From positions 2,108,001 to 2,172,000 of the forward strand of contig NZ_CP080437.1 of the NCBI RefSeq assembly GCF_021216655.1: DNA of 64,000 nt, in the 5' to 3' direction. The translations under genes and the position numbers were made by a program. A model generated the notes under the pieces. That model saw only the letters and a list, made by a program, of their open reading frames with translations, had not been told where the DNA came from and made no database searches. This document shows, in pieces, positions 625 to 63,980 of this stretch (its first letter is position 1; the number at the start of each line of letters is the position of its first letter). This stretch comes from Clavibacter michiganensis (GTDB lineage: Bacteria > Actinomycetota > Actinomycetes > Actinomycetales > Microbacteriaceae).

Positions 625-1221
625 CTACTCTCCCGCGGCCGCCGCCAGCGCCCGCTCCATCACGTGATCCGTCTCCACCGCGTCCGACAGCCGGAACGAC
701 CGCGTGCCCACGATGTGGAAGCCGCTGCGCTCGTAGAACCGGATGGCGCGCGCGTTGTGCTCGTTGACGCCGAGCCAGATGCCGGCATCCGCGCCGAGGC
801 CGCGCTCCCCCGCGAGCTCGCGCGCGACGCGCAGCGTCTCCGCCATGAGAGGCCGCGCGACGCCGACCCCGTGCGACCCCGCCTCGACGTACACCTTGCT
901 CAGCTCGATCTCCGGCCGCAGCCGCAGCGCTCCCGCCACGTCGGCGTCCGCGGGCGGCGCCTGGACGACCATCGTGTAGCCGACCGGCCGTCCACCGACC
1001 TCCGCGAGCACGACCCGGTGCGCGGGATCCGCGAGGTGCTCCCGGAAGCGCGCGGGCGACAGCACGGTGCGGATGTGCTCCTCGATCGCGGCGGCCGTCG
1101 TGGTCGGCGGGCACGCGAGCGCGAAGGTGCGGGCGGCGAGGGCGGCCACCTCCTCCGCGTCGTCGGGCGTCGCGACGCGGAAGGAAGGGGCGGCGGGGGC
1201 GGCGGGATCCGGGGTGCTCAC
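625..1221 (-). CDS. GNAT-family N-acetyltransferase
   Basis: 198 residues with the acetyl-CoA fold. The acceptor-strand and pyrophosphate loop region is VYVEAGSHGVGVARPLM (about 110-126), a variant of the Q/R-x-x-G-x-G/A loop. It is followed by NEHNARAIRFYERSGF (about 153-168), the usual C-terminal motif of GNAT enzymes. The substrate (small molecule, peptide or protein amine) cannot be deduced. The start is GTG at 1221: a TAGGCT hexamer lies exactly 6 bases upstream and no ribosome binding site is present, which suggests a leaderless transcript. It stands alone between the LacI fragment and the rplA terminator. Confidence 0.85.
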   Translation of the reverse strand: MSTPDPAAPAAPSFRVATPDDAEEVAALAARTFALACPPTTTAAAIEEHIRTVLSPARFREHLADPAHRVVLAEVGGRPVGYTMVVQAPPADADVAGALRLRPEIELSKVYVEAGSHGVGVARPLMAETLRVARELAGERGLGADAGIWLGVNEHNARAIRFYERSGFHIVGTRSFRLSDAVETDHVMERALAAAAGE

Positions 1222-1258
1222 CTTGCGAGCCTAGGCAGCCGCGCGGCCCGGGAACGAC

Positions 1259-1286
1259 GGAAGGGCCCGCCGAGGCGAGCCCTTCC
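1259..1286 (-). terminator. Hairpin after rplA
   Basis: The arms GGAAGGGC and GCCCTTCC pair around a 12-base GC-rich loop that can pair further. It lies about 40 bases past the rplA stop codon, where the end of the secE-nusG-rplK-rplA unit is expected. There is no strong U tract, as is common in GC-rich actinobacteria. Confidence 0.6.
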
Positions 1287-1325
1287 TGTGCTGCTGGTCG
1301 TGCGTGCGCTTCTCGCGCGGCGGTG

Positions 1326-2012
1326 CTAGATGGAGTTGACGTCCACCGGGATGCCGGGGCCGAAGGTCGTGGAGACCGTGGCCTTCTGCACGTAGCGGCC
1401 CTTCGAGGAGGACGGCTTGAGGCGGACGATCTCCTCGAGCGCTGCGCCGACGTTCTCCGAGAGCTGCTCGGGCGAGAAGCTCGCCTTGCCCACCACGAAG
1501 TGGACGTTCGCGTGCTTGTCGACGCGGAACTCGATCTTGCCGCCCTTGATGTCGGACACCGCGCGCGCGACGTCCGGGGTGACCGTGCCGGTCTTCGGGT
1601 TGGGCATGAGGCCACGCGGGCCGAGCACCTTGCCGAGACGACCGACCTTGCCCATGAGCTCTGGCGTCGAGACGGCGGAGTCGAACGACGTGTAGCCGCC
1701 CGCCACCTTCTCGATGAGCTCGTCGCCGCCGACCTCGTCGGCGCCGGCGGCGATGGCCGCCTCGGCCGCGGGGCCCGTCGCGAAGACGATGACGCGGGCG
1801 GTCTTGCCGGTACCGTGAGGAAGGATGACGGTGCCGCGGACCATCTGGTCTGCCTTGCGGGGGTCGACGCCGAGCTTGAGCGCGACCTCGACGGTGCTGT
1901 CGAACTTGCTGGAACCGGTCTCGCGCGCGAGCTCGACGGCCTCCGAGGCGGTGTACGCCTTGGCGGGATCGATCTTCTCGGCTGCGGCCCGGTAGGCCTT
2001 TGACTTCGCCAT
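1326..2012 (-). CDS. rplA: 50S ribosomal protein L1
   Basis: 228 residues, the normal length. The start MAKSKAYRAAAEKIDPAK, the central MPNPKTGTVTPDV loop and the end TTFGPGIPVDVNSI are diagnostic of L1. The protein binds 23S rRNA at the mobile L1 stalk and helps release of deacylated tRNA. In many bacteria it also represses its own operon by binding the mRNA; that is known for the family and not shown here. ATG start with the ribosome binding site GGAGAC. It is the last gene of the secE-nusG-rplK-rplA operon, 99 bases after rplK. Confidence 0.98.
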   Translation of the reverse strand: MAKSKAYRAAAEKIDPAKAYTASEAVELARETGSSKFDSTVEVALKLGVDPRKADQMVRGTVILPHGTGKTARVIVFATGPAAEAAIAAGADEVGGDELIEKVAGGYTSFDSAVSTPELMGKVGRLGKVLGPRGLMPNPKTGTVTPDVARAVSDIKGGKIEFRVDKHANVHFVVGKASFSPEQLSENVGAALEEIVRLKPSSSKGRYVQKATVSTTFGPGIPVDVNSI

Positions 2013-2111
2013 TCGTGTCTCCTGTTTCGAGAGTGCGGTTGATGTGAGCCTGGCCGGCTCTCCCGCGTGATGCTGGAGCGGATCCCGGTCGGGAGCCGCG
2101 GGTGGTGGAGG

Positions 2112-61834: not shown

Positions 61835-62440
61835 ATGCAGCTCTACTCCGCGCTCCCCCTCGTCCGCGCCCGGCAGATCGCGGCCGACACCGCGGCGCTC
61901 GCGGGCATCGTCGTGTCGGTGCTGGTGGGGATCGCGGTGGCCGCGCTCATCCGGCCGCTCGGCGACCTCGGCCGCAGCATGGAGGAGTCGGGCACGCGGC
62001 TCAGCGGATCCATGACCGACGCGGCCGACGCCCTCGGCCGCCTGCCGCTCGTGGGGGACGCCGCGCGCGGGCCGTTCGAGGACGCGAGCGGGATCGGATC
62101 GGGCCTCGTGCAGGCCGGGCGCGACCAGCAGTCGCTCGTCGGCACCATCGCGCTCGTGCTGGGGCTGCTGGTGGCGCTCGTGCCGATCGCGTTCATCGTG
62201 CGGCACTGGCTGCTGCGACGCGTCTCCTTCGTGCGGCGCGCGGCCGCCGCCCGCTCGCTCGCCGCGACGCCCGGCGGCACCGAGCTGCTCGCGCTGCGGG
62301 CCCTCTCGTCCAGGAAGCCCGCGGCGCTCCTGAGGACGCACCCGGATCCGGTCGCCGCCTGGCGTGCGGGCGACCCGCGTGTCGTGCGGCAGCTCGCCGA
62401 CCTGGCGCTGCGTGACGCGGGGGTGTCGGACGGGCGGTGA
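61835..62440 (+). CDS. Hypothetical membrane protein
   Basis: 201 residues with two membrane helices (about 18-42 and 105-128) enclosing a soluble loop of about 60 residues and a basic C-terminal tail that continues after the second helix. No family recognised. ATG at 61835; CAGGCT lies 6 bases upstream, a weaker form of the leaderless signal. Confidence 0.65.
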   Translation: MQLYSALPLVRARQIAADTAALAGIVVSVLVGIAVAALIRPLGDLGRSMEESGTRLSGSMTDAADALGRLPLVGDAARGPFEDASGIGSGLVQAGRDQQSLVGTIALVLGLLVALVPIAFIVRHWLLRRVSFVRRAAAARSLAATPGGTELLALRALSSRKPAALLRTHPDPVAAWRAGDPRVVRQLADLALRDAGVSDGR

Positions 62441-62496
62441 TCACGCGAGCACGGCCGATGTGACGCGGGCCGCGTCCGAGGAGCATCCTCGAGGGC

Positions 62497-63234
62497 ATGT
62501 CGCCTCTCCTCCTGGCCGGTCTCGCCGGCCTGCTCTCCGGGCTGTCGCTCGTCGTCGGATCCCTCGTCGCCTGGTTCGTGAAGGTGCCGCGCGAGGTCGT
62601 CGCGCTCGTGATGGCGTTCGGCGCGGGCGTGCTGATCTCGGCGCTGTCGTTCGACCTGGTCGACGAGGCGGCGGCGAGCGGCGGCGTGATCCCCACGCTC
62701 GGCGGCTTCGTCGCCGGCGCGGTCGTGTACGTGGTGCTCGACCAGATCCTCGAGCACGGCGGGTTCCGGCGGAAGCACCACGGGAGATCCGGCGGCGGAG
62801 GCGGCACCGGCGTGGGCATCGCGCTCGGCGCCCTGCTCGACGGCGTGCCCGAGACGGCCGTGCAGGGCCTCAGCCTCACGGGCGGCGGGGCGCTGAGCAT
62901 CGGCGTGCTCGTCGCGGTCGTGATCTCGAACTTCCCCGAGGGCATGTCGAGCACGGCGGATCTGAAGCAGAGCGGACGCAGCGCGCGCTACGTGTTCGGG
63001 CTCTGGACCTCCATCGCCGTGGTCTGCGCGCTCTCCTCGGTCGGCGGCTACGCGCTTCTCGGCGGCCTGCCGGAGAGCGGGCAGTCGGTCGTGATGGCGT
63101 TCGCGGCCGGCGCGATCCTCGCGATGATCTGCGACACGATGATCCCCGAGGCGTTCCGCAAGGCGCAGGCGCTCACCGGGATGGTGACGGTGCTCGGGTT
63201 CGTGGCGAGCTACGCGGTGCACCAGGCGGGTTGA
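62497..63234 (+). CDS. ZIP-family metal transporter-like protein
   Basis: 245 residues, seven or eight membrane helices and a Gly/His-rich loop (RRKHHGRSGGGGG). The helices contain ALLDGVPETAVQGL and VVISNFPEGMSS: the ZIP pattern xNxPEG is kept, but the usual histidines before it are Asp and Ser-Asn. So it is a ZIP relative whose metal site differs. ATG at 62497. Confidence 0.8.
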   Translation: MSPLLLAGLAGLLSGLSLVVGSLVAWFVKVPREVVALVMAFGAGVLISALSFDLVDEAAASGGVIPTLGGFVAGAVVYVVLDQILEHGGFRRKHHGRSGGGGGTGVGIALGALLDGVPETAVQGLSLTGGGALSIGVLVAVVISNFPEGMSSTADLKQSGRSARYVFGLWTSIAVVCALSSVGGYALLGGLPESGQSVVMAFAAGAILAMICDTMIPEAFRKAQALTGMVTVLGFVASYAVHQAG

Positions 63235-63284
63235 GGTCGCCGGGCGGTGGATCCGCGAAGGCGGCCAGACGGCCAGGCGCCGGG

Positions 63285-63839
63285 TCAGGCGTCCGCGGGC
63301 CGGTCGCGCGGCGACACGTTGAAGCGGTGCAGCAGGCCGGCGAACTGCTCGACCTCATCGGTGTCCCACGCGTGGAGGCGGTTCTGCAGCCGTTCGCGCG
63401 TGCCCATCCGCACCTGCGCGAGGCGCTCCTCGGCGAGGGGCGTGAGGGTGAGGATCGTGGAGCGGCGGTCCTCGGGATCCGGCTCGTCCTGCACGTACCC
63501 GGCCTCGCGCAGCACGCGCAGGTGCCGGCTCACCGAGCTCTTGTCCATGAGGAGGCCGGCGGCGACGGCGCCGGCGGACGCGGGCCCGTCGGTGCGGATC
63601 CACCGGGCGACGGCGAACGCGCCGGGCTGGAGGCCGGCGTGGAACGCGGCCGCCTCCTCGACGCGGAGCGTGCGGATCTGCATGAGCAGGGCCCCGAGCT
63701 CGGTCGCGACGGACGACACCGCGGCCGAGCGGTCGCCGGCGGGCGCGGGGACGGGCGCGCCGGGCTCGGCGCCGCCGTCCGCGGGCGCGGCGTGGACGGG
63801 CACGCCGGCGGGGCGGTCGGGAGTCGGCTCCGGGATCAC
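63285..63839 (-). CDS. MarR-family regulator
   Basis: 184 residues with a Pro/Ala-rich N-terminal stretch of about 40 and then the MarR domain (GPASAGAVAAGLLMDKSSVSRHLRVLREAGYVQDEPDPEDRRSTILTLT). GTG at 63839 is 6 bases after TAGGGT with no ribosome binding site. A + strand gene seems to begin at the window edge, divergently, and may be its target. Confidence 0.87.
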   Translation of the reverse strand: MIPEPTPDRPAGVPVHAAPADGGAEPGAPVPAPAGDRSAAVSSVATELGALLMQIRTLRVEEAAAFHAGLQPGAFAVARWIRTDGPASAGAVAAGLLMDKSSVSRHLRVLREAGYVQDEPDPEDRRSTILTLTPLAEERLAQVRMGTRERLQNRLHAWDTDEVEQFAGLLHRFNVSPRDRPADA

Positions 63840-63980
63840 GTGCCGACCCTAACCGACGCCGATCCGGGCATCCGCCCCATGGGGAGACGGCCTCGCCGGC
63901 GGGGGCGCGGCCGCGGGGGCGTCCGCCGGATCCGGGTGCCCGACCGCCCCCTGGTAGCCTCGTCCGCGCAGGCGGGGACG

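What the first reader, a model, noticed from the sequence alone, without database searches (positions are those of the whole stretch)
1219..63851. At least 19 genes show TANNNT exactly 6-7 bases before the start codon: widespread leaderless transcripts
I read the bases before each start. In 19 genes on both strands (starts at 1221, 7721, 8535, 4428, 10131, 16331, 16901, 19694, 23139, 23297, 28752, 28892, 34470, 34587, 42145, 46196, 49889, 61434, 63839) a hexamer TAGGCT, TAGACT, TATGCT, TAGGGT, TATAAT or similar lies at exactly 6 or 7 bases, nearly always without a ribosome binding site. A -10 box at this distance puts transcription start on the start codon. Operon-internal genes use SD or ATGA overlaps instead. 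Leaderless mRNA is known in actinobacteria; the tightness of this code here is striking and fixes several start codons.
Basis: partly seen in the sequence, partly recalled or inferred. Interest (0 to 1): 0.75.

Follow-up and report, generated by a model that had tools for sequence, protein, structure and literature searches.

The report
Leaderless gene starts in Clavibacter
In this plant-associated actinobacterium many genes have their promoter box so close to the start codon that the messenger RNA should begin at the start codon itself; the pattern is real and strongly conserved, but it is a well-known habit of actinobacteria.

Summary
18 of the 19 listed starts have TANNNT exactly 6-7 nt upstream; the 19th (49889) has TAGACA. 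It is far from chance and not special to the window. With starts chosen by coding potential alone, 107 of 707 gene starts in 864 kb of this genome have TANNNT at 6-7 nt (87 at 6, 20 at 7), against a mean of 1.6 per offset at 12-39 nt. The window's rate, 11 of 63, equals the rest, 96 of 644. The hexamer behaves as a -10 box: genes with it rarely have a Shine-Dalgarno site or a second upstream TANNNT, and 9 of 15 tRNA genes carry TANNNT upstream. In Microbacteriaceae it stays 6-7 nt from the start for seven of eight window genes tested, moving with the start codon when that shifts; a leadered control gene shows it in 0 of 30. The genome is a Clavibacter. Leaderless genes with TANNNT are established for Actinobacteria: 19% on average by prediction, 26% (M. 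tuberculosis) and 33% (C. glutamicum) by mapping. A new instance of a known kind; no transcript data were available.

The parts
1228..1233 (-). -10 hexamer TAGGCT, 6 nt before GTG at 1221 (GNAT acetyltransferase)
   Evidence: spacer one longer in second Clavibacter through a 1-nt insertion
4415..4420 (+). -10 hexamer TATGCT, 7 nt before ATG at 4428 (class I/II aminotransferase)
   Evidence: 29 of 30 family loci at 6/7 nt (own copy counted)
7728..7733 (-). -10 hexamer TAGGAT, 6 nt before GTG at 7721 (MaoC/FAS1-like dehydratase)
   Evidence: 27 of 30 family loci at 6/7 nt (own copy counted)
8542..8547 (-). -10 hexamer TAGCCT, 6 nt before ATG at 8535 (65-aa ORF, no family match)
   Evidence: unchanged in second Clavibacter
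10119..10124 (+). -10 hexamer TAGGCT, 6 nt before ATG at 10131 (alpha-amylase family)
16318..16323 (+). -10 hexamer TAACAT, 7 nt before ATG at 16331 (YajQ family)
   Evidence: 28 of 30 family loci at 6/7 nt (own copy counted), 2 of 29 loci from elsewhere in the class
16888..16893 (+). -10 hexamer TAGACT, 7 nt before ATG at 16901 (cardiolipin synthase)
   Evidence: not conserved: 5 of 30 family loci
19701..19706 (-). -10 hexamer TAGGGT, 6 nt before GTG at 19694 (A24 peptidase family)
23146..23151 (-). -10 hexamer TAGACT, 6 nt before GTG at 23139 (menG/ubiE methyltransferase)
   Evidence: 63 of 80 loci at 6/7 nt, 4 more at 8
23284..23289 (+). -10 hexamer TAGGCT, 7 nt before GTG at 23297 (isochorismate synthase, divergent from menG)
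   Evidence: 62 of 70 testable loci at 6/7 nt
28759..28764 (-). -10 hexamer TACCAT, 6 nt before ATG at 28752 (PLDc_N domain protein)
28880..28885 (+). -10 hexamer TATGCT, 6 nt before GTG at 28892 (DUF4229)
   Evidence: 21 of 24 aligned family loci at 6/7 nt (own copy counted)
34478..34483 (-). -10 hexamer TAGGCT, 7 nt before ATG at 34470 (M13 peptidase, PepO-like)
   Evidence: 27 of 30 family loci at 6/7 nt (own copy counted), 3 at 8; coding-only start was 34557
34574..34579 (+). -10 hexamer TAGCTT, 7 nt before ATG at 34587 (65-aa HTH-like ORF), TTGACA 17 nt further up
   Evidence: HTH assignment by eye, not searched
42133..42138 (+). -10 hexamer TATAAT, 6 nt before ATG at 42145 (GntR/FCD regulator)
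   Evidence: a 1-nt insertion falls inside it in second Clavibacter
46183..46188 (+). TAAGTT, 7 nt before GTG at 46196 (HxlR regulator); weak call
   Evidence: posterior 0.38; unchanged in second Clavibacter
49896..49901 (-). TAGACA (not TANNNT), 6 nt before ATG at 49889 (LysR regulator); weak call
   Evidence: posterior 0.81; no aligned counterpart
61421..61426 (+). -10 hexamer TAGCGT, 7 nt before ATG at 61434 (117-aa protein, no Pfam match)
   Evidence: spacer 6 in second Clavibacter through a 1-nt deletion
63846..63851 (-). -10 hexamer TAGGGT, 6 nt before GTG at 63839 (MarR regulator)
   Evidence: not scored by the model (window edge); no aligned counterpart
   Evidence: posterior 0.96; C-12, A-11 and T-7 kept, -8 changed in second Clavibacter
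   Evidence: posterior 0.96; unchanged in second Clavibacter

Best explanation
The hexamers are -10 boxes of the housekeeping sigma factor placed so that RNA polymerase starts on, or within about one base of, the A or G of the start codon. The mRNAs then have no 5' leader and no Shine-Dalgarno site, and ribosomes start on the 5'-terminal AUG or GUG. Shown here: the offset peak, the -10-like base pattern, the shortage of SD sites and of other upstream TANNNT at these genes, and conservation tied to the start codon. Inferred: the actual transcript 5' ends, the sigma factor and the mode of ribosome entry.
For: Offset peak with starts chosen without upstream information: 87 at 6 nt and 20 at 7 nt of 707; 0 at 5 nt, 6 at 8 nt, mean 1.6 at 12-39 nt; out-of-frame start-like codons and 10,759 in-gene ATG/GTG show no peak. 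Learned motif T.78 A.92 G.64 G.61 N T.98. A G two bases after the hexamer follows the hexamer, not the start codon (73% at spacer 6, 55% at spacer 7) and is also seen after TANNNT upstream of leadered genes (64% of 105). Of 107 genes with the box, 4 have an SD match of 5 nt or more against 165 of 600 others; 2 of 69 with enough intergenic DNA have another TANNNT upstream against 141 of 326. TANNNT lies in the 60 nt upstream of 9 of 15 tRNA genes, which have no start codon (2.5 expected from shuffles). Start codons 74 ATG, 33 GTG, no TTG. Loci in the family at 6/7 nt, own copy counted: YajQ 28/30, aminotransferase 29/30, PepO 27/30, MaoC 27/30, DUF4229 21/24; named genomes: menG 63/80, menF 62/70; leadered control 0/30. 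In 12 menG loci the start lies 12-24 nt further up and the hexamer is still 6 nt before it. Between two Clavibacter genomes, -14..-7 has 1 mismatch in 160 aligned bases, -40..-17 has 60 in 422 (summed by me).
Against: No RNA data. The cardiolipin synthase case is not conserved (5 of 30). 46196 and 49889 are weak. The model's 204 of 707 leaderless calls include many chance calls: 38-47 in five shuffles. Only 4 of 68 starts in the sampled second Clavibacter were at 6/7 nt (80 kb only). No -35 element is seen at these boxes; this is as reported for M. tuberculosis but leaves the promoter call resting on the -10 alone. 6 of the 15 tRNA genes have no TANNNT upstream. In the locus comparisons any in-frame start within 60 nt (menG and menF: up to 90 and 240 nt upstream) was accepted, which raises the chance of a hit; the control and the YajQ loci outside the family (2 of 29) show how little.
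Confidence: 0.94

Rival explanations
1. The hexamer is a translation signal inside a longer leader, for example a weak AGG-containing ribosome-binding site 6-7 nt before the start.
For: AGG occurs within TAGGCT-like boxes and the distance suits a ribosome-binding site.
Against: The bases kept are T-12, A-11 and T-7, not an AGGAGG run; T at the last position is 98%. Genes with the box mostly lack another upstream TANNNT, 2 of 69 against 141 of 326, so a longer transcript would have no visible promoter. 9 of 15 tRNA genes have TANNNT upstream too.
Confidence: 0.03
2. Some listed starts are wrong, so that the box belongs to a leadered promoter of a gene that starts further downstream, or lies inside a longer gene.
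For: For 7721, 16331, 16901, 28752 and 34470 the coding-only start lies elsewhere, 9-87 nt away.
Against: Family loci of 7721, 16331 and 34470 keep the box 6-7 nt before an in-frame start at or near the matching place. For 16901 they do not support it (5 of 30); 28752 was compared only with the second Clavibacter, unchanged.
Confidence: 0.12
3. Chance: TANNNT is a loose motif.
For: TANNNT fixes only three bases.
Against: At 73% G+C it is rare: expected 0.3 in 63 starts, observed 11, binomial probability about 1e-14; 96 of 644 outside the window.
Confidence: 0.005

Closest known systems
TA-led (leaderless) genes of Actinobacteria, Zheng et al. 2011, PMC3160421 (passages seen)
   Same: TANNNT around 12 bp before the start, found in 86 of 89 actinobacterial genomes, average 19.2% of genes (range 2.3-29.8).
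   Different: Predicted genome by genome; Clavibacter and Leifsonia do not occur in its main text (its genome list was not seen). The present work adds per-gene series in one family.
Leaderless transcriptome of Mycobacterium tuberculosis, Cortes et al. 2013, PMC3898074 (passages seen)
   Same: TANNNT -10 box, no conserved -35; 26% of genes with a primary start site are leaderless.
   Different: Start sites measured there; inferred here.
Leaderless mRNAs of Corynebacterium glutamicum, PMC3890552 (passages seen)
   Same: 33% leaderless, only AUG (79%) and GUG (21%) starts; here 69% and 31% (74 and 33 of 107).
   Different: A weak -35 was found there in 704 of 2,522 promoters; none is seen here at leaderless boxes as a group.

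Membership tests
Leaderless (TA-led) genes of Actinobacteria | TANNNT -10 box about 12 bp before the start codon, peaked over other offsets | tested here: met
   107 of 707 at spacer 6-7, mean 1.6 per offset at 12-39
Leaderless (TA-led) genes of Actinobacteria | No Shine-Dalgarno site | tested here: met
   SD match of 5 nt or more in 4 of 107 against 165 of 600; the SD string is recalled, not read from this genome's 16S
Leaderless (TA-led) genes of Actinobacteria | Start codon AUG or GUG, not UUG | tested here: met
   74 ATG, 33 GTG, 0 TTG; others 9 TTG of 600, so the absence of TTG is weak evidence by itself
Leaderless (TA-led) genes of Actinobacteria | Rare at operon-internal genes | tested here: met
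   80 of 446 first genes, 6 of 174 tightly spaced internal genes; 21 of 87 at gaps of 21-60 nt
Leaderless (TA-led) genes of Actinobacteria | Transcript 5' end on the start codon | not testable with these tools
   no RNA data held; two searches listed no start-site study of Clavibacter
E. coli-like sigma-70 promoter | -35 element 16-18 nt before the -10 | tested here: not met
   TTGACA match of 4 or more bases in 4 of 136 at 16-18 nt, no more than at other spacings (5, 6, 5); 34587, not in that set, has TTGACA at 17 nt. M. tuberculosis promoters also lack a conserved -35

The most novel reading that the evidence does not exclude
In Microbacteriaceae the -10 box and the start codon of particular genes behave as one inherited unit: it is kept across most sampled genera while nearby upstream sequence changes, it moves when the N-terminus lengthens or shortens, it dispenses with a -35, and leaderless state was fixed for given genes (YajQ) near the base of the family although most other class members sampled look SD-led. 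That would mean selection for leaderlessness itself, gene by gene, rather than drift between two equivalent signals.
Probability: 0.3. Interest if true: 0.45.

Novelty: new member of a known kind. Interest (0 to 1): 0.22.

Why it matters
It corrects start codons that coding statistics alone place elsewhere (7721, 16331 and 34470, with support from relatives) and gives gene-by-gene series, across about 30 genera, in which loss, gain and movement of leaderless starts can be watched. The general phenomenon is well established.

Tried and rejected
Whole-genome count: the file was not given; a sample of 40 stretches plus the window was used. Model 'SD' class: with the none-class at 3% it absorbs genes without a clear signal, so its labels are not used; the SD comparison depends on the model's labels, one search does not. 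A -35 element: not found by mismatch counts or by motif learning (the learned motif at leaderless boxes was G+C-rich and little better than a shifted control); leadered genes have slightly more TTGACA-like matches (11 of 105 against 4 of 136, Fisher 0.03), too weak to build on. C at -1 as an initiation signal: rejected as evidence, since leadered genes have it as often (69% against 57%). Functional bias: Pfam scan of 90 of 118 eligible leaderless and 90 of 195 eligible leadered proteins; among the 25 families listed for each, aldo/keto reductases were 5 of 90 against 1 of 90 and MFS_1 2 against 4; not pursued. Plasmid-sized contigs C2 and C3: only 15 genes usable in 72.6 kb, none with the box, not informative. 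Relatives sampled at 80 kb each: 4/68 (same genus), 6/63 (family), 10/70 (order), 9/54 and 7/65 (class) at 6/7 nt: same peak, too few for ranking. First control gene (46662-47957) had relatives in only 10 of 60 genomes and was not analysed; gene 9970 replaced it. That control has many paralogues and loosely aligned N-termini, so its 0 of 30 is fair but not perfect. Left out of counts: DUF4229, 2 of 26 loci without a local match; menF, 9 of 80 loci without a match and 1 without N-terminus. The cardiolipin synthase set of 30 includes one second copy from the same genome (L372).
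Full report
What was checked. The bases before each of the 19 listed starts were read. TANNNT stands 6 nt before ten of them and 7 nt before eight; 49889 has TAGACA instead. None has an SD-like match of five or more bases in -18..-4.

Is it chance, and is it the window? The window and 40 further 20-kb stretches of the same genome (864 kb) were given to a gene caller of my own that uses coding composition only, so that starts are chosen without looking upstream (752 genes, 707 with a usable upstream region). 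The distance from TANNNT to the start codon peaks at 6 nt (87 genes) and 7 nt (20), with 0 at 5, 6 at 8, and a mean of 1.6 at 12-39. The small excess at 9, 12 and 21 nt fits starts called one or more codons downstream (inference). Outside the window alone it is 96 of 644, in it 11 of 63, no difference (Fisher 0.58). In-gene ATG/GTG codons (10,759) and out-of-frame start-like codons near gene starts show no peak. First genes have it in 80 of 446 cases, tightly spaced internal genes in 6 of 174, genes 21-60 nt behind a co-directional neighbour in 21 of 87.

A mixture model that also lets the start move gives 204 of 707 genes a leaderless posterior over 0.5, against 38-47 in five dinucleotide shuffles, so roughly 160, or 23%, after subtraction. 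This lies inside the 2.3-29.8% range reported for Actinobacteria. Of the 19 starts, 17 were scored and 16 exceed 0.5; 46196 does not (0.38); 34587 and 63839 were not scored.

What the hexamer is. The learned motif is strongest at T-12, A-11 and T-7, the bases that matter most in a -10 box (established knowledge). A G two bases after the hexamer is favoured whether the spacer is 6 or 7, so it is anchored to the box (73% of 107 and 55% of 29), and leadered genes show it after their TANNNT as well (64% of 105); in E. coli this position contacts sigma region 1.2 (recalled). No -35 pattern is visible for the group. In the comparison that does not depend on the model, genes with the box have SD matches of five bases in 4 of 107 cases against 165 of 600 others, and another TANNNT in the intergenic region in 2 of 69 against 141 of 326; the second figure is probably somewhat inflated by miscalled starts among the others. 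Upstream TANNNT of leadered first genes are commonest 30-70 nt before the start, as for ordinary leaders. 9 of 15 tRNA genes in the sample have TANNNT in the 60 nt upstream, 2.5 expected from shuffles, which a translation signal would not explain; the other six have none, some of them second genes of a cluster.

Conservation. A menG search in named genomes places the window in Clavibacter (98% to C. michiganensis CFBP8019). In the best 80 menG loci the box is 6/7 nt before an in-frame start in 63, 8 nt in 4, and absent in 13; the 13 are Schaalia, Micrococcales KH10, three Occultella, Promicromonospora, Sanguibacter, one Cellulomonadaceae and five Streptomyces or Streptomycetaceae records, none labelled Microbacteriaceae. 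In 12 loci, mostly Microbacterium, the start lies 12-24 nt further upstream and the box has kept its 6 nt. For menF, divergent from menG, 62 of 70 testable loci agree, 5 more have it at another spacing of 5-9 nt, 3 lack it. For YajQ, the aminotransferase and PepO only the best 30 loci from 60 genomes were read. Cardiolipin synthase is the exception, 5 of 30. The leadered control gene has it in 0 of 30. Outside the family, YajQ has the box at 6/7 nt in only 2 of 29 class loci and at 8 nt in one, many of the rest showing GGAG-like leaders by eye. One family locus (L138) keeps TAGCAT 29 nt up with an SD-containing leader between it and the start, which looks like a switch from leaderless to leadered (inference).

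Between the window and a second Clavibacter genome, 20 of 22 starts (the 19 plus 14170, 61835 and 30649) could be aligned; positions -14 to -7 differ in 1 of 160 bases, -40 to -17 in 60 of 422, -6 to -1 in 14 of 120 (summed; insertions not counted). Single-base indels change the spacer at 1221 and 61434, staying at 6-7, and one falls inside the box at 42145.

How it works. RNA polymerase with the main sigma factor opens at the -10 box and starts on the purine of the ATG or GTG; the transcript has no leader; the ribosome starts on the 5'-terminal start codon. The promoter is well supported by sequence; the start site itself and ribosome entry are inferred.

Known or new. Zheng et al. 2011 (PMC3160421, passages), Cortes et al. 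2013 (PMC3898074, passages) and the C. glutamicum transcriptome paper (PMC3890552, passages) describe the same thing, with the same motif and similar distances, start codons and shares of genes. Searches for Clavibacter with leaderless and transcription start, for Microbacteriaceae with leaderless and promoter, and for Clavibacter michiganensis with transcription start site and promoter listed no study of start sites in this group (listings only, open-licence papers only). So the instance appears undescribed in that library, the kind is well known, and interest is low to moderate; the gene-by-gene series are the useful part.

Noticed in passing
window 34550-34784: A 65-aa HTH-like ORF (34587-34784) divergent from PepO was missed by my gene caller; a perfect 8-bp inverted repeat CTTGACAC-N7-GTGTCAAG (34550-34572) covers its TTGACA, a possible operator. 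The exact repeat was not found in the 29 other PepO loci, where presence of the HTH gene was not checked.
   Followed up: partly
L138, upstream of yajQ: The box TAGCAT is kept 29 nt from the start with an SD-containing leader in between: an apparent leaderless-to-leadered switch.
   Followed up: no
L126-L155 and L256-L284: YajQ has the leaderless layout in 28 of 30 Microbacteriaceae loci but in only 2 of 29 loci from elsewhere in the class.
   Followed up: partly
menG loci L112, L114, L120, L123 and L124: Outside Microbacteriaceae some menG genes have CATGAT- or CACAAT-like boxes about 6 nt before the start, so they may be leaderless with C instead of T at -12 (by eye).
   Followed up: no
window 23139-23297: menG and menF are divergent with both starts of the leaderless layout, and both keep it in most of the menG loci.
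   Followed up: partly
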